Shown here: piece after piece, positions 1-11,270 of the stretch
Layout: every line of letters starts with the position of its first letter
Numbering within the stretch: position 1 is the stretch's first letter
Assembly (NCBI GenBank): GCA_024226555.1
Contig: JAAELO010000358.1
Location: 1-48,072, forward strand
From: Desulfobacterales bacterium
GTDB taxonomy: Bacteria > Desulfobacterota > Desulfobacteria > Desulfobacterales > JAAELO01
Length of the DNA stretch: 48,072 bases
Reading direction: 5' to 3'
Program-made: the position numbers and the translations under genes
Notes under the pieces: generated by a model
Told to the model about the DNA's origin: nothing
Database searches by the model: none
The model's input: the letters and a program-made list of their open reading frames with translations, nothing else

Positions 1-75
1 CAATAGGTTTTAACGGCAGAACATGAGGTGTATAGACACATAGCAGTTTGCTATGAGACTTCAACCATTTGTAAA

Positions 76-204
76 GGGAATTCTCTAATAACTGTTCTTT
101 TGGCAAAATACTTTGTTATTTCCAAAAAAAACTGTAATAAAGTCGGCTCGTTATTTTTTGAAATGCCTTGTATTTTATCCAAAATTCTAATTATTAGAGG
201 TTCC
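76..204 (-). repeat. MITE-like dispersed element, copy 1
   Basis: Begins GGGAATTCTCTAATAA and ends TTATTAGAGGTTCC, an imperfect terminal inverted repeat. The interior carries the reverse complement of the family core (ACAAGGCAT, then AACGAGC), so this copy is inverted relative to those at 5187, 13845, 20538 and 42207. No coding role is visible. Confidence 0.75.
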
Positions 205-267
205 AATATATAATTTTTCCAAAAAAGGTTTCATTATTAAAAAAGCATTTATTTTTATTCATGTCAA

Positions 268-364: not shown

Positions 365-943
365 ATGATTGAAACATCTCTCGGACTTAAATCAAGACGA
401 TTGATTTTAAGACCACTCAAAAAAAATGATGAACCATATCTTTATCAATGGAACATGGATCCCGATGTTCGCCACATGTGGACTCAGGACAGGGATATTC
501 CTTCCTATGATCGGTTCATAGAAAAATATACCAGAAAAATAAAAAATAGATTTGATCTTTTTTTTATGATTCAGCAGAAGACCTCTGGACAACCAATCGG
601 CTTCATATATGACTATGCCTCGGATTCCATAGATAGAAATGCTTATCTTTGTCTTTACATCGATGAAAATACAAATGCCAGGGGAGCTGGAATTGAGAGC
701 GCAGCTATATTTATGAATTATCTTTTTATGCACTACAATTACAGAAAACTTTACTCTGAAGTTTACGAGTTCAACACCCACGCTCTTTCCATAACCAGAA
801 AAGCAGGATTTCAGGAGGAGGGATGCCTTAAAGATTACCGCTACTGGAATGGTAAATATTGGGATCAGTATATTTTCTCCATCACTGCACAGGCTTTTTC
901 TGAGAAATATAAAAAATATGAATATTACTTTAATAAGCATTGA
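365..943 (+). CDS. GNAT family N-acetyltransferase (RimJ/RimL-like)
   Basis: A 192-residue protein with a GNAT fold of normal family length. The opening residues (SRRLILRPLKKNDEPYLYQW) are typical of the RimJ/RimL type. The acetyl-CoA loop is RGAGIESA near residues 106-113, followed by the helix and the late HALSITRKAGFQEEG block that closes the fold. Such enzymes move acetyl from acetyl-CoA to an amine on a small molecule, peptide or protein; the substrate cannot be told from sequence. It lies 25 bp upstream of the radical-SAM gene on the same strand and is probably co-transcribed with it, so it may act on the same peptide or give self-protection. That is inference. The start is an ATG with a weak AAGGA upstream. 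Confidence 0.85.
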   Translation: MIETSLGLKSRRLILRPLKKNDEPYLYQWNMDPDVRHMWTQDRDIPSYDRFIEKYTRKIKNRFDLFFMIQQKTSGQPIGFIYDYASDSIDRNAYLCLYIDENTNARGAGIESAAIFMNYLFMHYNYRKLYSEVYEFNTHALSITRKAGFQEEGCLKDYRYWNGKYWDQYIFSITAQAFSEKYKKYEYYFNKH

Positions 944-968
944 AAGATAATACAGGATTTTAAGTAAT

Positions 969-2834
969 TTGAATATATCACAAAAAACAACTACTGAGCC
1001 CAGACTTGTTCATCTTCTATATGTACCAACAACTTTCTGCAATTTAGGTTGTCGTTATTGCTATCTGGGAGACCAGATTGATGCTTCGGACCAGTTTAAT
1101 AAAGATTGTGAAGATGCATTAAACACACTCAAAAGAACTGTAGAAAAGTTAATTGATAACAATATATTGCCTTTTAATATTTCTCTTCATGGCGGTGAAG
1201 TAACCACTTTGCCTGAGCCTGTTTTAGAATCTTTATTTTTATATATAAAAGAGTATTATGATACCCATCGACAGACTCTTGAAAAACATGGTTTTAAAAA
1301 ATCAAACCCTCATATCAAGACAAATCTGTATAACTTCGGACAGTTATATGATCTGTTTGATAGACATGAGGTTTCAATAAGCGGTAGCATGGATCTTCCC
1401 TTTTCTCTTCATGAAAAATATAGAACAACCAGAAATGGGAATTCATCACTAAACAGGATTCTGGAAAATGTAAAACTTCTGGGACAGTATCCACACAGAA
1501 AAAAAATATCAGCAACCCTTTTCAGCGAGCATTTAAAAAGACAAGAGGAGATCGCTGATAATATTATTGAGCTTCATGAAACTTATGGTTTTGATATGAA
1601 TCGTTTCAATATTATGTTCGGGTTTGAATCCGATCTAAGCAAGAAGCGTCATGGAAAGTCAACTGATCCGTCTATAACTCTTAAAATGGCAACAGATCAG
1701 GAACAGGTTGCTTTTTATCGATTTTTAAAGGAACGATTTGCAGGGACAGACCTTACTAAGGGTTTTCAGACCTTATGGTTTGAGGAATTTACGCCTTCTT
1801 TCTGTACAAACAGTTTCAACTGTGGAGAAAAGTTCTATCTCCTCCAAAGTGACGGAGATGTCTACTCCTGTGTAAGAGGACAAGGAAATGATGCCTTTTA
1901 CTATGGAAACGTCTATAACGATACCATTGAGGATATTATCAAAACCGGTGAGAAGAGAATTTCACTTGTACACAAATCTCTGGGCTTACATGAAGATTGC
2001 AAGGGGTGTGATTATATAAAAGTTTGTCACACAGGTTGTCCCTTTGTGAAACTTCAACAGAGCTCAGGTAAATCTTATACGTGCCTACTACAGAAAGAGA
2101 TGTACAGGGAATCTGAATCCATTTATCCAAAGCCGGAAGATCAAAGAGAAAAGGATGACAATCTATTTGAATATGCTTCAGATATGCATCCAGCTGAAGT
2201 TGCAGAGCTAAAGGAAAATCTGGATCAATCTGCGAATCTTGTGTTACCCGGCGATTTTTATGATGAAAAAAATGTACTTCACCAAATTATACTGGATGAT
2301 CCGGTACTTACTGCACTATATTCACCTGATGCTTTCATCATAACTATTGATGATGATGATATAACCTTGTCCTCACAGATTCTGAAAACATACAGGGAAA
2401 TGTATCATCTGTATCCGGAACAAGAGGTAACAATACATATAAAAGAGGACATTTTTCGTAAAAACTGTCGTGAAACTGTACGCAACACTCTTTATATACA
2501 AATGCTCCGGGATACACGTGTAATTTATGGAGAAGAGAAAAGAACCAAACAGGAGCATCTTTTTACACATAAGGTCTATTTTAATCACCTTGAACAAAGC
2601 AAGCCTGGTTGGTTGAAATTCAGACTTTCCCCTTTACTTGAACTTCACAAAAATCTATACCTTTCCGGAGTAATAAATAACCTGTTTTTTACAACAGGAG
2701 ATCTTCGGGATTATCACTATTCAGTACAAAAAAATAACGGATTCTATCATGTACAGGCCATAAATCTTCCGTTTCAGAATTTTGAATTTTACTGGGATTC
2801 CCTAAACATAAAAGGAGAAAAAAATGTTAAATGA
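969..2834 (+). CDS. Radical SAM/SPASM peptide-maturase-like enzyme with long C-terminal extension
   Basis: A 621-residue radical SAM protein. The SAM cluster motif is C24-x3-C28-x2-C31 (CNLGCRYC), with HGGE at 74-77. A complete SPASM domain follows: C279, C285, then Gx4C ending at C301, then CxxCx5CxxxC (C344, C347, C353, C357) and C372, enough for two auxiliary 4Fe-4S clusters. SPASM proteins of this type usually modify ribosomal peptides. Residues from about 390 to 621 are an extension I do not recognise; it is longer than in usual SPASM maturases and could bind or position the substrate. The start is TTG, chosen because it leaves the usual short lead to the first cysteine. The stop overlaps the next gene by 11 bp, which implies translational coupling with the poly-Asn protein. 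I cannot name the exact family. Confidence 0.85.
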   Translation: MNISQKTTTEPRLVHLLYVPTTFCNLGCRYCYLGDQIDASDQFNKDCEDALNTLKRTVEKLIDNNILPFNISLHGGEVTTLPEPVLESLFLYIKEYYDTHRQTLEKHGFKKSNPHIKTNLYNFGQLYDLFDRHEVSISGSMDLPFSLHEKYRTTRNGNSSLNRILENVKLLGQYPHRKKISATLFSEHLKRQEEIADNIIELHETYGFDMNRFNIMFGFESDLSKKRHGKSTDPSITLKMATDQEQVAFYRFLKERFAGTDLTKGFQTLWFEEFTPSFCTNSFNCGEKFYLLQSDGDVYSCVRGQGNDAFYYGNVYNDTIEDIIKTGEKRISLVHKSLGLHEDCKGCDYIKVCHTGCPFVKLQQSSGKSYTCLLQKEMYRESESIYPKPEDQREKDDNLFEYASDMHPAEVAELKENLDQSANLVLPGDFYDEKNVLHQIILDDPVLTALYSPDAFIITIDDDDITLSSQILKTYREMYHLYPEQEVTIHIKEDIFRKNCRETVRNTLYIQMLRDTRVIYGEEKRTKQEHLFTHKVYFNHLEQSKPGWLKFRLSPLLELHKNLYLSGVINNLFFTTGDLRDYHYSVQKNNGFYHVQAINLPFQNFEFYWDSLNIKGEKNVK

Positions 2835-3201
2835 AAGACTTTCCGGAACCATTGATCATTTCTTTTCATTCATTCAAGCTGATGAAGGTGATTTGAGTGA
2901 AACCAAAAAAGAGATGCACTCTTTTTTTCAAAGCAATGCTGGGACCCATGTGGTTCATGATAGCGGTGCTATTTATTTCTATGAAGGAAAAAAACTGCTT
3001 CGGTTTTCTGATATAGCTATTTCTGATACCCAATTGATCCACACTTTTGATGGAAAAAAAATAACAGCAGTAACTCCTTACAATGGAAGTTATAAGATGA
3101 AGTCAGGTGATCAAAAGAGCGGGGGTACGAAAAGAAGAAGCAACGGTGATTCAGGTGGTGTTTCCTCCAATAACAACAATAATAACAATAATAATGGATG
3201 A
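2824..3201 (+). CDS. Putative RiPP precursor with Gly/Ser tail and nine-Asn run
   Basis: A 125-residue protein that I do not recognise. It has a strong AAAGGAG upstream of its ATG and overlaps the end of the radical-SAM gene by 11 bp. Residues 1 to about 90 look like an ordinary folded or leader region. Residues 94-125 are low complexity: Gly, Ser, Lys, Arg, then G111-G112, VSS, Asn116-124 and a final Gly. The Asn codons are a mix of AAT and AAC. There is no Cys. The arrangement (one small protein coupled to a SPASM enzyme, with an odd repetitive C-terminus) is that of a peptide substrate with its maturase. G111-G112 could mark a double-glycine cleavage giving a short Asn-rich core, but no other leader motif supports this. 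It could instead be a partner protein rather than a substrate. Confidence 0.65.
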   Translation: MLNERLSGTIDHFFSFIQADEGDLSETKKEMHSFFQSNAGTHVVHDSGAIYFYEGKKLLRFSDIAISDTQLIHTFDGKKITAVTPYNGSYKMKSGDQKSGGTKRRSNGDSGGVSSNNNNNNNNNG

Positions 3202-3222
3202 TCTCACTTTCACGAACATTTA

Positions 3223-3260
3223 ATAATAGAAGGGGATATTTTTACTCCCCTTCTTATTAT
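3223..3260 (+). terminator. Hairpin terminator after the putative precursor
   Basis: A stem of about 13 bp with one bulge (AATAGAAGGGG against CCCCTTCTTATT) around an A/T-rich loop, 20 bp after the precursor stop. A run of T is only moderate downstream. It probably ends the GNAT / radical SAM / precursor transcript. Confidence 0.55.
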
Positions 3261-3323
3261 CTCATGTCTTTTTATGAACCGGGGTTATGTCTACCGTTTT
3301 ACCTAGATTGCAAAGTTGCTGGA

Positions 3324-3430: not shown

Positions 3431-3620
3431 CTAACAACAGTTATTATTCTTTGTTTTACCGTTGCTATTAAATAATCCACAAAAATCTGAGTTCTTCATT
3501 TTTTTCATAAACTTTTTCATTTTTGCCGGATCACAACAACTACAATTACTCATCATCTTTTTAAAATCTTTAGTGCGACATCCCTGTGCTTTACCATTTG
3601 TTTCTTGTTTCTTGTTTCAT
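3431..3620 (-). pseudogene. Cys-rich mini-protein, start out of frame across a 7-bp tandem repeat
   Basis: On the minus strand an excellent AAGGAG lies 5-10 bp before an ATG at 3620, but that frame stops after nine codons. Directly after the ATG come three copies of a heptamer (AAACAAG, AAACAAG, AAACAAA; 3617-3597). In another frame the DNA encodes a Cys-rich, Lys/Met-rich small protein down to TAG at 3431, with CSCC, one more Cys before GLF and a terminal NNNCC. Removing one 7-bp copy would join the good start to this frame and give a protein of about 60 residues. An internal ATG at 3556 could give 41 residues in the present sequence, but has no clear ribosome-binding site. This is either a contingency (phase-variable) gene now OFF, a frameshifted pseudogene, or an assembly slip. 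The protein family is not recognised. Confidence 0.5.
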
Positions 3621-3641
3621 TGTTTCTCTCCTTTTTTTTAT

Positions 3642-3769
3642 GGGAATCTCTAATAAACTCTCTTTTGGCGAAATACATTGTTATATCCAAAAAAATTGTA
3701 ATATAATCGGCTCGTTATTTTTTGAAATGCCTTGTATTTCATCCAAAAATTTAATTATTTGAGATTCCC
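3642..3769 (-). repeat. MITE-like dispersed element, copy 2
   Basis: Ends GGGAATCTCTAATAA and ATTTGAGATTCCC, core in the same inverted orientation as copy 1 and very similar to it. It is flanked on both sides by TTAT, an exact 4-bp target duplication. It lies just upstream of the Cys-rich mini-gene (minus strand) and could influence its promoter. Confidence 0.8.
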
Positions 3770-3836
3770 TTATGTTTTTTTTACCTTCAATCTATGTATG
3801 CTTTTCCTTTTTATCTTAAGTAAACTCTATTTTTTC

Positions 3837-4769: not shown

Positions 4770-5186
4770 GCCTCAACTCCTTGTTACTTAATTTAGATTT
4801 TAGCTTCGTAGCAACTAAACCTGCGACTTCTTTATTTTTTTCAGGTCACCTGATATATGTTTGTATTAATTTAGGTTGCTTTATATATTTAAGACTTTTT
4901 TGGCCTGTAAAAGGTTACAAATATTTAATATTTTTAATCACAAATTTTCATATTATCGGAGGGAAAAGGGTGTAAAACCTTATTTATCCATTCAAGAGAG
5001 AAATCTGGAACAGGCCTCTATTCTTTCTAATTATCATTTTTTTTTATAATGATGATGTCAAATATCCACTTATTTTGTATACTATTAATGGCTATTTACT
5101 TTGACTTATTTTGGAGATACTCTTGTTTTCTATAGATTCCCTATTATTTATTTAGCCAGATTCGTAACAATAAAGGACTAAGTTTA
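4770..5186. other. Intergenic, no gene seen
   Basis: A/T-rich DNA upstream of the hydrolase (which reads leftward) and before element copy 3. A short open frame at 4781-4975 has no ribosome-binding site and a composition like the surrounding non-coding DNA. It should contain the hydrolase promoter, but no clear -35/-10 pair stands out. Confidence 0.5.
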
Positions 5187-5314
5187 GGGAATCTCTAATA
5201 ATTAAAATTTTTGATGAAAAACAAGGCATAACAAAAAACAACGGGTTGATTTTACTACAGTTTTATTTTTGTTATATCTGTGTTTCGCAAAAAGATCAGT
5301 TATTAGAGGTTCCC
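5187..5314 (+). repeat. MITE-like dispersed element, copy 3
   Basis: Ends GGGAATCTCTAATAATTA and CAGTTATTAGAGGTTCCC. The interior has the family core (ACAAGGCAT then AACG..TGATTTTAC). It is flanked by TTTA on both sides, an exact 4-bp duplication. It ends 41 bp before the solute-binding protein gene. Confidence 0.85.
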
Positions 5315-5355
5315 TTTAGTTAATTTCTCTTCACATACCATCTATTGGAGAAACG

Positions 5356-6414: not shown

Positions 6415-6543
6415 GGGAACCTCTATAACTGCCTTTTGATCGAACTACAGCGTTTTTTCGAATAAAAATTGTAGTATGCTTATAAATTAAAGCTTTTTAT
6501 AAACGTTGAATTTCAATCAAAATTCTAACTATTAGAGGTTCCC
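6415..6543 (-). repeat. MITE-like dispersed element, copy 4
   Basis: Ends GGGAACCTCTATAACTG and TATTAGAGGTTCCC. Its left part (CTTTTGATCGAACTACAGCG) matches the reverse complement of the right part of copy 7, so it is inverted relative to that copy. The inside carries AGCTTTTTATAAACGT, shared with copy 8. It sits 5 bp after the thioesterase stop (which reads leftward) and could act as its terminator. Confidence 0.75.
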
Positions 6544-6548
6544 TTTAA

Positions 6549-6968
6549 TTATTTATTATTTAAAACAGCCATTGTTAATCTTGAGACACAAACAGTTTTT
6601 CCCTCTTCATCTACTATTTTTATATCCCAGATCTGAGTTGTTCGTCCAACATGTACGGGCCTTCCAACGCCAGTCACAAGCCCCTTGCTAATACTTCTGA
6701 CATGGTTTGCATTTACTTCAAGGCCGACGCTGTAAGTACCTGGCTCTCCGGCCATGTGAGCTGCAATACTTCCAAGAGTCTCAGCAAGAACGACGGATGC
6801 TCCTCCATGTAAAATCCCCATGGGTTGATGAGTCCTATGATCCACAGGCATTGTAGCTTTGATATAATCATCTCCAACTTCTGTAATCTTAATATCCAAA
6901 TGATTAACTATCGTGTTCTCCATGGAGTTTATCTGCTCAGGAGTCATGGGTGATTTCCAAATAGTCAT
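6549..6968 (-). CDS. Hotdog-fold acyl-CoA thioesterase (PaaI/YdiI type)
   Basis: A 139-residue single hotdog domain, full length for the family. The signature HGGASVVLAETLGS covers residues 54-67, with the catalytic Glu63 at the same position as in E. coli YdiI/EntH-type esterases. These enzymes hydrolyse acyl- or aroyl-CoA thioesters. AAGGA precedes the ATG. It follows the giant activase/dehydratase gene by 81 bp on the same strand, with only a shortened element between, so the two may be co-transcribed and act on related CoA esters. The exact substrate (DHNA-CoA, aroyl-CoA or other) cannot be read from the sequence. Confidence 0.88.
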   Translation of the reverse strand: MTIWKSPMTPEQINSMENTIVNHLDIKITEVGDDYIKATMPVDHRTHQPMGILHGGASVVLAETLGSIAAHMAGEPGTYSVGLEVNANHVRSISKGLVTGVGRPVHVGRTTQIWDIKIVDEEGKTVCVSRLTMAVLNNK

Positions 6969-7049: not shown

Positions 7050-10000
7050 TTATGCTGCATGTACTCTATATGCAAAACTCTTAACCTTTCTAACATCGAT
7101 TGGAGTTCCATCGTCATAGAAGAAATGAAGTGGAATTTCCTTTTTATGTCGTAGCAGGCTCTCTTCAATTATACTGTTATCACATCCCCAGCAGCTTGCC
7201 ATCATAACGCCATCATAATCGCCATTATCCCAATGATGAAGAACATTACCAACAGCATAACCAGCACCACCATTTGTTTCAGTATCTATGATTTTAGAAG
7301 ATCTTTCAAGAGCTGCTTTCAGATCCGGCATTGGAATCCATGCATTTTCTTTTCTTATTACTTTATAAAGTCTTTTTCTAATTGCTATCATCACAGTAAG
7401 GTACATTTTAATCTGATTTTTGGATGCTCCTCTTCCAAACATAAATTCAGGTTTAACTCTTCCAAGAAATTCAAGGAAATCTCCAAATGGTTCATAGATT
7501 GTTCTGACTTTCAGATCGCTCAAATGTTTAAAAATTCCTGCGCCGGCAAAATCATTTCCTTTTGTCATAGCATCACCGGAAACAAATATCTTTTTGTATT
7601 CACTATCTGCAAGAGGTTTTTTCTCCATAGCTTTAAATGCATCTGAAGCATCTTTCAGTATCTTTTCGAGCTTAAACCATTCCTTTACTTTCTGCCTGCT
7701 TCCTTTAAAACCCTTCAATGAAGGTCTTTCAACTAATTTTACTACTTTCTTGTTGTAATAATGATATAAATTATTTGCTTCTCCTTCATTAAGTTCTGTT
7801 GCCTGGTAGTAAAGATAGAATTGACGGATAATATCTGCGGCTGCGATGGATGCTATGAGCTTTGCGGACATTGAAACTCCTCCTGCAATCTTTAAGGAAG
7901 AGATGTTAACCATATCGTTTAAACCCATATTATTTACTGAGATTCCATCTTTAATACCATACATTCCGGCACGGCACATACGGCCTGTTACCTGCATCAA
8001 TCTGGTTTCTTTATCCAGTTTATTCTTTTCAAGATATTCTTTGAATGCCCCCCAGATAAGTTGGTAAGACATGCACTCCTTACCTGAGCAGTCTGATCTT
8101 CCTCTAAGATAGTTCTCTTCTGTTAGTTCAGGAGCATGGGTTGTATCATATCCATAGGCTTTATATAAACCGGCATATAACTCTCCAAGATAATCGATAC
8201 TGCTTAGGAAAACATATTTAACATTCTTATCAAGATACTTGAATTTGTTACCACCAAAATTAAGAGAGTTCACAAGAACTGAGTTATCATAACTCTTTTT
8301 CTCTTCAACAATCCTATACTGCTTAACAGATTGTAAAAAAGCCTGGATACGTGTAATAAACCCTGCACCGCCACCATGCCCGTCACTTTCCAAAATGGTG
8401 TGTGGATATCCCTCAAGCAGGGAAGTAAAGACATGTTCAATAAATGAGGTTGGACCACAACCAAAAGATGCAAGCATTAATGGAAATGCATTTTTCATGT
8501 TTTTAGCTGCTTCTGCTGCACGAATATATCTGTTTGGATCTCCCCAGTATACTTTACCCATCATTGGAGTATCTTCTGGTATTGGAAAGCAATCCATTGG
8601 AACAGCCATGGCTCCATTTTGTCTTAAGTAATCAGGTATTTTTGAGTTTGCTGCTTTCTCATGGATTACATGCTGAGCCCCACAAACCAGAACGACTGGA
8701 AGCTTTTTTGAGTTTGCATAAGAAATTGCATCATTTCCGATTTTCGCAAGGAACAACTCGAACTCTTTCTGTGCTTGAATACCTTTTGCAACAGCTGATT
8801 TTACACTTCCAAAATCAATTCCAAGTGTCTTAGTCAATACTCTAAAACTTTCTATGGTGTCTGTGCCCTTTAAACCTTTACCAAAGTCAAACTTTGGAAT
8901 AAGTACTTCATTGTTTTTCCCCCTGCTTTTTAAAGCTTCGCGAACCATCTCCGGCATAGATTGTTCTGAAACACATGTTTGTCCACCAAGACCATCTCTA
9001 TCATCAATCTCAAGGATCTTTGGAAAAAAGATGTATGGATCATCTCCGTTACATAATGCATATGCAATCTTTACCGGGCCGCAGGAGTCAAAGCTGTTAC
9101 AAAGTCTCTCTCCGGTTTGAAGGGATTTTTTATCAGATTTTAGAAGTTTAACAGATAAACCAAGTTCTCCTAACACTGTTCCAAAAAATGGAATGTAACC
9201 ACCCACAGGACCTGTTACAGGAATTGCTATTTCAGGGAGTCCCTCTTTTAATACTGCATACTCATCGATTTTTTCAGCTCTTTGGAGAAATGGATCTGGC
9301 GCATCTTTTTCAAGTCTTGTTCCTTTTGCAGAGATTTCATACTTGGGACAGGCGCCACCAGATGTTGCTACTTTTTCCATGTCATTATACAAAATTGTTG
9401 TTCGTTCAATTGGACAAAGATTGTTGCACTCCTTGTCCTTGCAAGTGAACTCTTTCTTCTCTACAATTTCAGCATCCAGAATATTTTCAGGATTCAGTGG
9501 CTTTGCATCAAGTAAAGCATCAACGCCTGTTTCATCTATTGTATTTATACCTATTCCCCAGGCTCCCATAGCTCCAGGATTTGGTGGAATAGTGATCTCT
9601 CTTTCTGTAATTGATGCAAGAGTCCATGCTAAAGATTCATTTGAAGCAGGTTTTCCCTGAAAGAATATTTTATCACCAAGTGTTCTTTGACCCATTACGC
9701 GGTTAAGATAGTTAAAAATAACTGAGTATTGAAAACCAGCGAATATATCTTTTAATTCAAATCCCTCTTTAATGGCCTGGGCCCCGGATTCAGCAATAAA
9801 TACCGTACACATCTGCCCAAGATCAGGCGGTCTTTTTGAAGTTTTTGCAAGTTTTACAAAATCTCCTATATCATGCACATCATAAAATGCGGCCTGTTCT
9901 TCCAGAAAGGAACCAGTACCAGCACTACACGCTTTGTTCATATCACTTTCAATTATTCTTCCACCTTTAACTCTGATATACTTTGCGTCCTGTCCACCAA

Positions 10001-11270
10001 TTTCAACTATGGACATATCGGAACCATTATCCGGGTCAAGCTTTATGGCGGCAGTGGCATGGGCTACAATCTCATTTAAAACGCAGATATTACCTTCAGG
10101 AAAAACTGATCTTACAAGAGTAGCCACAGCTTCTCTTCCAGATCCGGTAAGACCAATTGACCGAATGTCAGGTGTGCCCTTTTCAAGTATTTGTTTGATA
10201 AGTCTTCTTGCAGCATCAACAGGATTTCCTTTTGTTCTGTCATAAACATCCAGAACAGGCAGACCTGTTTTGATAGAAGTAAGTACTGCTTTTGCACCTG
10301 TTGAACCAAGATCCATTCCAAGAACCATAGGTTCCTTGTCTATAATTCCATCAGAATTTATTTCTTCTAATATAGTTACATTATCTTTTGAATTGAAAGC
10401 AGGTGAAAGTACATGAAATCGTTTTTCAGATCGGTTTATAAAATCTTCAGGATCTTTTGGAAGAGTAACAGCCGAATCAATTTTTTCAGCTGCAATTCTT
10501 AAAGCTCCTTCAGCTTCAAAAGTAAAAAGATTTTCAGGATAGAGTATTTTTTCATCAATTCTGTTTTCAAATGATTCCTTTAAGGATTCAAAAGCGGTGC
10601 ATCCACCAATAAAACACACAGGGCCATCAACTTTGTTTCTTGATAGAATTGCCGCGATGTTCCCGGCTACAGAATCAAAGAAACCCTTGAATAACTCATT
10701 TGTTGGTTTTCCTGCATTTGCATAGTGAGTCATTTCACTTTTTGAGAATACTGAGCAGCGTGCGGTTATAGGGATAATATCAGTGGCATCTTTAGCAAGT
10801 TTATCAGCTTCATCTATTGTAATGCCAAATCGTGCTGAAATTTTCTGGATGTTCTCCCCGGAACCCGATGAACATTTATCATTTTCAAGATAGTTATAGA
10901 AAAAATTATTTGAGTCTGCATTTTGGAAAGGTGTTCTGGTAAGAACGCTATACCCACTTGCTCCTGCACTTACTAGATTCATAGTATCTGGCAGAGATGT
11001 GTTGCTTTCAAGCTCTTTCTCCTGGCAAGCTTCTTCAGGAAAAACCATAACAGGAGATATTAGCTCTTCAGCATAATGGCCTGTGGCTGAAAGAGAGGTG
11101 CAATTTGCAATATCTTTTGATTTGTACCACTCTTTGAATGCTTTGAAAGGCTTTCCATCATGAAAAACATAATCGGTCTCTTCAATTTTAACATCGCCAT
11201 TTTCCGATACAGATCCAATTGCAAAACTTATGGAAGCTTTACCCAGGTCACAACCTGCTACTCTTTTCAT
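7050..11270 (-). CDS. Giant fused acyl-CoA dehydratase activase / 2-hydroxyacyl-CoA dehydratase-like protein
   Basis: A 1406-residue protein of the BadF/BadG/BcrA/BcrD (HgdC-like) activase family fused to dehydratase-like parts. Two ASKHA ATPase domains follow each other: residues about 1-265 (start GCDLGKAS; Cys133 in KCSSGSGE, Cys172 in RCSVF) and about 315-580 (MDLGSTGAKA; Cys448 in ACSAGTGSF, Cys488 in MCTVF). In HgdC-type activases such a Cys pair binds the 4Fe-4S cluster between two subunits. A Cys-rich linker (CKDKECNNLCP, about 610-625) leads to the DUF2229/HgdB-like region from about 665 to the end. The reaction is ATP-driven one-electron transfer for radical dehydration or reduction of CoA esters; the substrate is unknown. 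AGGAGG precedes the ATG. A divergent GlxA-type regulator starts 237 bp away and a thioesterase lies downstream. Confidence 0.9.
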   Translation of the reverse strand: MKRVAGCDLGKASISFAIGSVSENGDVKIEETDYVFHDGKPFKAFKEWYKSKDIANCTSLSATGHYAEELISPVMVFPEEACQEKELESNTSLPDTMNLVSAGASGYSVLTRTPFQNADSNNFFYNYLENDKCSSGSGENIQKISARFGITIDEADKLAKDATDIIPITARCSVFSKSEMTHYANAGKPTNELFKGFFDSVAGNIAAILSRNKVDGPVCFIGGCTAFESLKESFENRIDEKILYPENLFTFEAEGALRIAAEKIDSAVTLPKDPEDFINRSEKRFHVLSPAFNSKDNVTILEEINSDGIIDKEPMVLGMDLGSTGAKAVLTSIKTGLPVLDVYDRTKGNPVDAARRLIKQILEKGTPDIRSIGLTGSGREAVATLVRSVFPEGNICVLNEIVAHATAAIKLDPDNGSDMSIVEIGGQDAKYIRVKGGRIIESDMNKACSAGTGSFLEEQAAFYDVHDIGDFVKLAKTSKRPPDLGQMCTVFIAESGAQAIKEGFELKDIFAGFQYSVIFNYLNRVMGQRTLGDKIFFQGKPASNESLAWTLASITEREITIPPNPGAMGAWGIGINTIDETGVDALLDAKPLNPENILDAEIVEKKEFTCKDKECNNLCPIERTTILYNDMEKVATSGGACPKYEISAKGTRLEKDAPDPFLQRAEKIDEYAVLKEGLPEIAIPVTGPVGGYIPFFGTVLGELGLSVKLLKSDKKSLQTGERLCNSFDSCGPVKIAYALCNGDDPYIFFPKILEIDDRDGLGGQTCVSEQSMPEMVREALKSRGKNNEVLIPKFDFGKGLKGTDTIESFRVLTKTLGIDFGSVKSAVAKGIQAQKEFELFLAKIGNDAISYANSKKLPVVLVCGAQHVIHEKAANSKIPDYLRQNGAMAVPMDCFPIPEDTPMMGKVYWGDPNRYIRAAEAAKNMKNAFPLMLASFGCGPTSFIEHVFTSLLEGYPHTILESDGHGGGAGFITRIQAFLQSVKQYRIVEEKKSYDNSVLVNSLNFGGNKFKYLDKNVKYVFLSSIDYLGELYAGLYKAYGYDTTHAPELTEENYLRGRSDCSGKECMSYQLIWGAFKEYLEKNKLDKETRLMQVTGRMCRAGMYGIKDGISVNNMGLNDMVNISSLKIAGGVSMSAKLIASIAAADIIRQFYLYYQATELNEGEANNLYHYYNKKVVKLVERPSLKGFKGSRQKVKEWFKLEKILKDASDAFKAMEKKPLADSEYKKIFVSGDAMTKGNDFAGAGIFKHLSDLKVRTIYEPFGDFLEFLGRVKPEFMFGRGASKNQIKMYLTVMIAIRKRLYKVIRKENAWIPMPDLKAALERSSKIIDTETNGGAGYAVGNVLHHWDNGDYDGVMMASCWGCDNSIIEESLLRHKKEIPLHFFYDDGTPIDVRKVKSFAYRVHAA

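What the first reader, a model, noticed from the sequence alone, without database searches (positions are those of the whole stretch)
365..3260. Radical-SAM/SPASM cassette with a poly-Asn peptide: possible new RiPP class
Seen: a complete radical SAM plus SPASM enzyme with a 230-residue unknown extension, coupled by an 11-bp overlap to a 125-residue protein ending in a Gly/Ser tail and nine Asn, then a terminator; a GNAT gene lies 25 bp upstream. Known: SPASM enzymes usually modify ribosomal peptides encoded next to them. Inferred: the Asn/Ser tail is the modified core and the GNAT may acetylate or protect. No Cys in the peptide argues against thioether products, so epimerisation, C-C or C-O links on Asn/Ser are more likely.
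Basis: partly seen in the sequence, partly recalled or inferred. Interest (0 to 1): 0.78.

Follow-up and report, generated by a model that had tools for sequence, protein, structure and literature searches.

The report
Radical enzyme paired with asparagine tails
A rare radical enzyme sits next to proteins that end in a run of asparagines, small carrier proteins in bacteria and mostly tail fibres in phages, which suggests that it chemically finishes such protein tips.

Summary
In detail: a radical SAM/SPASM enzyme (969-2834) overlaps by 11 nt a 125-residue protein (2824-3201) ending Asn9-Gly; a GNAT gene lies 25 bp upstream. All 13 other cellular relatives found (Geobacterales, Gammaproteobacteria) are followed by a small protein ending in an Asn run (7-18; one masked after five). 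Enzyme and small protein occur in the same 8 of 141 and 3 of 63 genomes. In eight genomes tested, this gene holds the only run of eight Asn codons.

Unexpectedly, the same enzyme, C-terminal domain included, lies in Campylobacter phages and prophages, one gene after a tail fibre (in three contigs, another large protein). That protein ends in NNNNY, GNNF, GNNS or CNNNNN (14 of 14 records). Fibres with the same N-domain but no enzyme never do (0 of 16).

Best reading: SPASM maturases that modify a C-terminal Asn tract, or a residue beside it, on dedicated carriers and on phage tail proteins. A RiPP is possible, not shown. The GNAT is not conserved. Only cluster Cys are conserved, which argues against epimerisation. 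The chemistry is unknown.

The parts
969..2834 (+). Radical SAM/SPASM enzyme, 621 aa, TTG start
   Evidence: ORF; Pfam and NCBIfam radical SAM and SPASM domains; 13 other cellular loci and 14 phage, prophage or plasmid records with relatives over nearly the whole length
1038..1061 (+). CxxxCxxC motif (C24, C28, C31) for the SAM-binding [4Fe-4S] cluster
   Evidence: invariant in 12 aligned family members
2136..2831 (+). C-terminal extension, residues 390-621; the last ~90 residues (about 520-609) are the most conserved
   Evidence: no PDB sequence match and no Pfam match above cut-off; conserved in cellular and phage members
2824..3201 (+). Carrier protein, 125 aa, gene overlapping the end of the enzyme gene
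   Evidence: ORF; related protein next to the enzyme in all 13 other cellular loci
2824..3078 (+). N-terminal carrier domain (residues 1-85, two helices and five strands predicted)
   Evidence: AlphaFold2 model, block means of pLDDT 71-85 for residues 1-80; profile A3
3169..3198 (+). C-terminal Asn9-Gly tail, preceded by Ser-Ser: proposed recognition/modification site
   Evidence: sequence; conserved tail in relatives; only run of eight Asn codons in the assembly
3216..3267 (+). Imperfect 20-nt inverted repeat after the cassette, possible terminator
   Evidence: not listed by the terminator scan
365..943 (+). GNAT acetyltransferase; neighbour, not part of the conserved system
   Evidence: Pfam Acetyltransf_3/4; no match in the 13 other cellular loci

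Best explanation
This is a two-gene protein-modification cassette. The radical SAM/SPASM enzyme, marked by a family-specific C-terminal domain, recognises an asparagine tract at the extreme C-terminus of a partner protein and modifies that tract or the Ser/Thr/Cys next to it. In the window and in Geobacter, Thiothrix and other relatives, the partner is a dedicated carrier: a domain of about 85 residues, a flexible linker and 7-18 Asn, usually ending in Gly. In Campylobacter phages the partner is mostly the tail fibre, whose last residues are an Asn tip. Shown: the pairing, the co-occurrence, the tail conservation, the tip/enzyme association in phages, and the intact three-cluster Cys set. Inferred: that the tail is the substrate, and that the C-terminal domain reads it. 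Unknown: the bond that is made. My best guess is an anSME-like two-electron oxidation, or an ether/thioether/C-N link between the residue before the run and an Asn carbon. Cyclophane formation and epimerisation look unlikely.
For: Cellular: 14 of 14 loci have the enzyme followed by a carrier with an Asn tail (one, L053, is masked after five Asn). Separate searches with the enzyme profile and with the tail-less carrier profile find the same 8 of 141 and 3 of 63 genomes (and 28/58). In eight genomes the run of eight Asn codons occurs only here; codons are mixed in the 13 readable tails. Phage: a relative at 33% identity over 96% of the window enzyme in phage CAM-P21 and in a C. coli plasmid record, and in 12 IMG/VR contigs. 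In 14 of 14 the protein before the intervening ~211-aa ORF ends in an Asn tip. It is an identified tail fibre in ten (PF12571 in L070, L077, L079, L089, L092; fibre N-domain match for L072, L074, L075, L076; annotated so in CAM-P21), a C-terminal piece of one in L073, and a different large protein in three (L078, L080, L081). The ~211-aa protein is present in all 12 contigs (51-100% identity). Control: of 28 contigs with the same fibre N-domain, 7 have the enzyme and all 7 fibres end in NNNNY or GNNF. Of 21 without it, 2 fibres are cut, 3 have under 1.3 kb downstream, and of the other 16 none has the tip (contigs p = 4e-6 with near-copies). By distinct fibre-tip type within this fibre-anchored set, 4 of 4 against 0 of 7, p = 0.003. 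The residue before the run is Ser, Cys or Thr in 14 of 14 cellular loci. All eight SPASM Cys align with those of anSME. Nearest solved folds: anSME Z 22.3 (rmsd 3.9, 330 aligned) and ChlB Z 21.6 (rmsd 3.8, 324 aligned), tied.
Against: No chemistry was measured. The Asn tract could be only a docking tag, with the modified residue elsewhere. Phage tips are short (2-5 Asn), and four of 12 viral contigs have Gly, not Ser/Thr/Cys, before the run. In three of 12 contigs the tip-bearing protein is not recognisably a tail fibre. Two of 12 viral contigs carry a broken enzyme gene (L080 altered end, L092 split in two ORFs) while the tip persists; L092's contig is one of the seven in the control. In phages, tip, 211-aa protein and enzyme may travel as one recombining module, so the association could be linkage. 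The six phage enzymes placed in the tree form one group. The enzyme model is only moderately confident (mean pLDDT 71.8), and the C-terminal domain's fold was not searched alone.
Confidence: 0.72

Rival explanations
1. A true RiPP: the Asn tail is a core peptide that is modified, cut from the carrier domain and released as a small bioactive product.
For: Small protein encoded next to a SPASM enzyme, folded N-domain plus disordered tail, repeat-like core; a SPASM enzyme acting on a repeated motif has precedent (TvgB, PMC9062424, abstract, passages and section 4 read).
Against: No recurring protease or exporter noticed among the ORFs listed for the cellular loci (not scanned systematically). In phages the partner is a 263-368-residue tail fibre or a larger protein, from which release of the tip would make little sense. 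The recurring neighbours of the carrier gene are membrane proteins without Pfam match above cut-off.
Confidence: 0.25
2. The Asn run is a docking or solubility tail; the enzyme modifies Ser/Thr/Cys at its N-side (formylglycine-like oxidation to an aldehyde or ketone), which then serves as a covalent attachment point.
For: Closest family by sequence (88 bits) and, tied with ChlB, by fold is anaerobic sulfatase maturase; Ser, Cys or Thr precedes the run in 14 of 14 cellular loci and 8 of 12 viral contigs, against 20% S/T/C in the linker of eight carriers.
Against: The residue after the third auxiliary-cluster Cys, where anSME has its proposed base Asp (role and number recalled, not read), is Val, Pro or His here; four viral contigs have Gly before the run, with Ser/Thr one or two residues further up; Thr cannot give an aldehyde.
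Confidence: 0.25
3. Epimerisation of Asn to D-Asn along the tail, as in proteusins.
For: Asn-rich cores are known from polytheonamide-type peptides (recalled); the uniform repeat would suit an iterative enzyme.
Against: Known peptide epimerases use a critical Cys for catalysis (PMC8326336, passages read); here only the 11 cluster-position Cys are conserved in 12 aligned members. EpeE ranks well below anSME in the fold comparison (Z 12.9 against 22.3), which is weak evidence.
Confidence: 0.1
4. Coincidence: an ordinary SPASM orphan beside an unrelated low-complexity protein produced by triplet slippage.
For: Low-complexity runs do arise by slippage, and tail length varies from 7 to 18.
Against: 14 of 14 pairing over two phyla, same genomes in two searches of 204 genomes, mixed codons, unique run per genome in eight genomes, and recurrence with phage tail fibres.
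Confidence: 0.02

Closest known systems
Anaerobic sulfatase maturase (anSME, TIGR03942; PDB 4k36-4k39)
   Same: Radical SAM barrel plus SPASM with eight auxiliary Cys that align; best NCBIfam and PDB-sequence match and, tied with ChlB, best fold match
   Different: Scores 88 bits against a cut-off of 349; the match ends near residue 390, before the ~230-residue extension; the residue aligned with anSME's proposed base (recalled) is not Asp; the apparent target here is an Asn tail, not a sulfatase motif
PHROG 1802, 'radical SAM domain-containing protein' of phages
   Same: The window enzyme matches it over nearly its whole length, extension included (residues 19-611, E 1e-39); the Campylobacter plasmid-record enzyme gives E 6e-142
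   Different: Described only as a protein cluster; no substrate or function given; the window version is cellular and paired with a carrier
Peptide-modifying SPASM maturases: GrrM/OscB, YhhB, FxsB, DynA, PapB
   Same: Same enzyme class, substrate encoded next door (recalled for several)
   Different: All far below their cut-offs; cyclophane formers need an aromatic residue in the target and thioether formers a Cys (recalled), neither present in the window tail
TvgB (PMC9062424)
   Same: SPASM enzyme acting repeatedly on a repetitive substrate segment
   Different: Substrate is a TVGG repeat; no Asn-tail pathway appears in the passages and section 4, which I read; the supplement with all clusters was not read
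Proteusins (PoyD type)
   Same: Large leader region and Asn-rich core (Asn content recalled)
   Different: The carrier domain shows no family match; the window enzyme lacks the extra Cys; PoyD has no SPASM domain (recalled)

Membership tests
Radical SAM/SPASM enzymes | CxxxCxxC plus Pfam Radical_SAM above cut-off | tested here: met
   30.7 bits against 29.5; motif invariant in 12 members
Radical SAM/SPASM enzymes | SPASM domain with Cys set for two auxiliary [4Fe-4S] clusters | tested here: met
   PF13186 23.2 against 21.5, TIGR04085 44.5 against 27; eight invariant Cys at 279, 285, 301, 344, 347, 353, 357, 372
Anaerobic sulfatase maturase | TIGR03942 curated cut-off | tested here: not met
   88.1 bits against 349.45
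Anaerobic sulfatase maturase | Asp after the third auxiliary-cluster Cys, proposed base (recalled) | tested here: not met
   Val, Pro or His there in the family; role recalled, not read
RiPP system | Precursor encoded beside the modifying enzyme | tested here: met
   14 of 14 cellular loci
RiPP system | Core is modified and cleaved from a leader | not testable with these tools
   no recurring protease or exporter noticed by eye in the stretches read; not scanned systematically
Radical SAM peptide epimerase | Conserved catalytic Cys beyond the cluster ligands | tested here: not met
   only 11 Cys columns conserved, all at cluster positions; requirement from PMC8326336 passages
Three-residue cyclophane formers | Family model cut-off and aromatic residue in the target motif | tested here: not met
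   GrrM 62.7 against 310; YhhB, AmcB, FxsB also below cut-off; no aromatic residue in the window tail
Sacti-/ranthipeptides | Cys in the core peptide | tested here: not met
   0 Cys in the window protein; Cys directly before the run in 3 of 14 cellular loci
PHROG 1802 | Near full-length profile match | tested here: met
   E 1e-39 over residues 19-611

The most novel reading that the evidence does not exclude
A radical SAM enzyme family makes a previously unseen modification on C-terminal asparagine tips, and phages have recruited it to finish the receptor-binding end of their tail fibres, so that the fibre tip carries chemistry that the ribosome cannot make. The cellular carriers would be the same chemistry mounted on a small protein that works with a membrane partner.
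Probability: 0.45. Interest if true: 0.9.

Novelty: new variant of a known kind. Interest (0 to 1): 0.77.

Why it matters
Radical SAM chemistry on a phage structural protein would be a new way for phages to diversify or harden their adsorption tips, and a tail-reading SPASM enzyme would be a general tool for marking C-termini. The apparent substrate is defined by a simple motif and the module is two genes, so the chemistry can be tested directly. It would also give a function to PHROG 1802 and to a group of unassigned small proteins in Geobacter and Thiothrix.

Tried and rejected
GNAT as part of the system: rejected, no match in the 13 other cellular loci within the stretches held. Cyclophane, thioether and epimerase readings: see the membership tests. 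Terminator: only a long-loop inverted repeat. Carrier domain fold: no significant match (best VIA Z 4.8; no Foldseek hit at E <= 0.001), so the fold is unassigned rather than new. PDB sequence matches of the carrier profile are mostly poly-Asn stretches in maltose-binding-protein fusions, plus two SMC1 entries at E 0.016-0.018, taken as chance. Carrier domain and enzyme extension are not related by profile. Two other radical SAM/SPASM genes in the window's genome match only weakly (28 and 31% identity over parts). The membrane partner of type A was not found in the window's own genome (without a positive control there); type B was not searched there. Viral contigs: none with the first, cellular-only enzyme alignment, 12 once phage members were included; the C-terminal extension alone found the same 12 contigs. 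No viral contig has a nine-Asn run ending in Gly-stop by the pattern used. Defence library: only a weak viperin match, E 4e-4. Papers: searches. Judged from the listings, none of them returned a description of this system; one search listed 15 of 27 papers and most were not opened, and most subscription papers are not held, so absence in print is not shown. Opened: PMC13060819 (abstract only, C-terminal nitriles, unrelated enzyme), PMC8326336 (passages), PMC9062424 (abstract, passages, section 4), PMC2853527 (passages). The last reports 11-12 radical SAM proteins in two virulent Campylobacter phages; I did not test whether any is related.

Dropped before counts: in the fibre control, 2 cut fibres (L107, L108) and 3 with under 1.3 kb downstream (L111, L119, L122) were left out of the 16; the 3 complete ones also lack the tip. 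Of the 16, ten are one near-identical type, L129 has a short fibre ORF (197 aa), and L130 comes from the same genome number as the enzyme-bearing contig of L080. Fibre types were clustered on about 64 residues upstream of the last six. Adding the enzyme-anchored loci gives 7 types with the enzyme against 7 without (p = 0.0006), but three of those seven types (L080, L081, L089) came only from scans with the enzyme and two of these are not recognisable fibres, so the fibre-anchored 4 against 7 (p = 0.003) is the fair count. L053 was left out of the codon count.
Full report
What is there. The window begins at the start of a contig of a 7.69-Mb genome. The described genes are present as stated: GNAT 365-943, radical SAM/SPASM enzyme 969-2834, small protein 2824-3201. 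The small protein ends Ser-Ser-Asn9-Gly and has no match in Pfam, NCBIfam, PHROGs or PADLOC. The enzyme has both expected domains, but the NCBIfam maturase models listed (25 of 47 families shown) are far above its scores; the best is anaerobic sulfatase maturase, 88 against a cut-off of 349 bits. Its C-terminal extension of about 230 residues has no PDB sequence match and no Pfam match above cut-off.

Relatives in cells. A scan of species genomes with the enzyme gave seven loci: Trichlorobacter, Geobacter and other Geobacteraceae or Pelobacter, and Thiothrix caldifontis, 42-51% identical over nearly the whole length, extension included. Searches with the alignment added two in the Geobacter order (8 of 141 genomes in all), two in the Thiothrix order (3 of 63) and two more Gammaproteobacteria (3 of 321). 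The window's own order gave only the window (1 of 291, single-protein query; 1 of 58 relatives with the profile), its phylum 2 of 345 and the phylum of Thiothrix 1 of 378. So the system is rare and scattered.

The pair. In all 13 other cellular loci the gene after the enzyme encodes a small protein ending in an Asn run: 7-18 Asn and a terminal Gly, with the run broken by Gly (..NGNNNG) in three Thiotrichales and ..NGNNGNNG in L103. One run (L053) passes into masked sequence after five Asn. The rest of the protein is a weakly conserved domain (17-23% identity to the window). AlphaFold2 gives it two helices and five strands with a disordered tail (mean pLDDT 67), and no solved fold stands out. 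Searching the same genomes with the carrier domain alone, tail removed, returned the same 8 of 141 and 3 of 63 genomes: neither gene was found without the other there. In eight whole genomes, eight consecutive Asn codons occur only in this gene. The codons are mixed in all 13 readable tails, with no pure run over four, so the tail appears to be kept at the protein level. Ser, Cys or Thr precedes the run in 14 of 14 (9, 3 and 2).

Other neighbours differ. A protein of about 150-167 residues lies upstream in eight loci and an unrelated one of 266-269 residues downstream in four; two hydrophobic segments were computed in the two members of each type that I tested. The GNAT occurs in the window only.

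The phage link. Searching plasmids and phages with the window enzyme gave one record each: a Campylobacter coli plasmid record and Campylobacter phage CAM-P21, 33% identical over 96% of the protein, extension included. Both show a tail-gene cluster; I call these phages Mu-like from gene content and memory. Scans of IMG/VR gave 12 contigs. In all 14 records the enzyme follows an ORF of about 211 residues (51-100% identical to that of L070 in all 12 contigs), and the protein before that ends in an Asn tip: NNNNY in 9, GNNF in 3, GNNS in 1, CNNNNN in 1. That protein is an identified tail fibre in ten records, a C-terminal piece of one in L073 (cut by the contig start), and a different, large protein of unassigned PHROG families in three (L078, L080, L081). 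So the tip recurs on proteins that differ otherwise.

Control. I searched with the fibre's N-terminal domain. Of 28 contigs, seven have the enzyme downstream, and all seven fibres have the tip. Of 21 without it, 19 have complete fibres and none has the tip; 16 of those have enough downstream sequence to judge. By type of the sequence just upstream of the tip this is 4 of 4 against 0 of 7, p = 0.003. In the five enzyme-free contigs I read, the fibre is followed by a 164-170-residue protein (DUF4376 in the one scanned, L117) and then a DUF1353-like gene (by eye; scanned in L070 only), instead of by the 211-residue protein and the enzyme. The window enzyme matches PHROG 1802 over nearly its whole length. 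In a tree of 20 enzymes the six phage sequences form one group (100/100), and the window groups with the Geobacter-type sequences and L101 (99/98), on a long branch.

How it most likely works. Three Fe-S clusters are supported by exactly 11 invariant Cys that align with those of anaerobic sulfatase maturase, and the predicted fold is closest to that enzyme and to ChlB. The only feature I see in common between the carriers and the phage proteins is the C-terminal Asn tract, so I infer that the enzyme reads it, perhaps through its C-terminal domain, and modifies it or the residue next to it. Which bond is made is not shown. Cyclophanes lack an aromatic partner in the window tail, thioethers lack Cys in most tails, and epimerases described so far use a critical additional Cys (PMC8326336, passages read), which this family lacks. 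That leaves oxidation or an ether, thioether or C-N link, possibly repeated along the run; a SPASM enzyme acting on a repeat is known (TvgB, PMC9062424, abstract, passages and section 4 read).

Limits. Everything is comparative. The tail may be only a docking signal. The phage association could be partly linkage of a recombining module. Two of 12 viral contigs carry a broken enzyme gene, one of them among the seven of the control. The enzyme model has a mean pLDDT of 71.8, and the extension's fold was not tested alone. Neighbouring genes of the cellular loci were not scanned systematically.

Verdict. It is better described as a tail-directed radical SAM maturation module shared by bacteria and phages than as a RiPP class with a GNAT.

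Noticed in passing
window 66-212, 3631-3776, 5178-5325 (minus): Three copies of a ~130-nt repeat with inverted repeats at its ends (about GGGAA..CTCTAATAA / TTATTAGAG.TTCC), MITE-like; two lie in direct orientation on either side of the cassette. A partial copy lies near 6494-6554.
   Followed up: partly
window 3431-3556, minus strand: A 41-codon Cys-rich ORF just downstream of the cassette, ending ..KNNNCC; no NCBIfam match. Possible small protein, function unknown.
   Followed up: partly
L080 and L092 (IMG/VR Campylobacter prophages): The phage enzyme gene is broken: altered C-terminal end in L080, split into two ORFs in L092. The tip of the neighbouring protein (GNNS, GNNF) is still present.
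   Followed up: no
L072-L081, L089, L092 compared with L110, L113, L117, L123, L131: Campylobacter phages seem to exchange a module: tip + ~211-aa protein (phrog_10241 in L070) + radical SAM, or fibre + 164-170-aa protein (DUF4376 in L117), both followed by a DUF1353-like gene.
   Followed up: partly
L078 4049-5356, L080 4272-5354, L081 3286-5355: Large phage proteins without Pfam match, in PHROG families of unknown function, that carry the same kind of C-terminal Asn tip as the tail fibres; probably other fibre-like proteins.
   Followed up: partly
L004 5517-5969, L101 2404-2904 (minus); L009 8166-8966, L103 2235-3038: Two unrelated membrane-type proteins without Pfam match above cut-off accompany the cassette, one upstream in Geobacterales and L101, the other downstream in Thiotrichales and L103; in L009 its start overlaps the end of the Asn-tail gene.
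   Followed up: partly
window 7050-11270, minus strand: A 1406-residue ORF that looks, from memory, like a fused activase/component of the 2-hydroxyacyl-CoA dehydratase type; not scanned.
   Followed up: no
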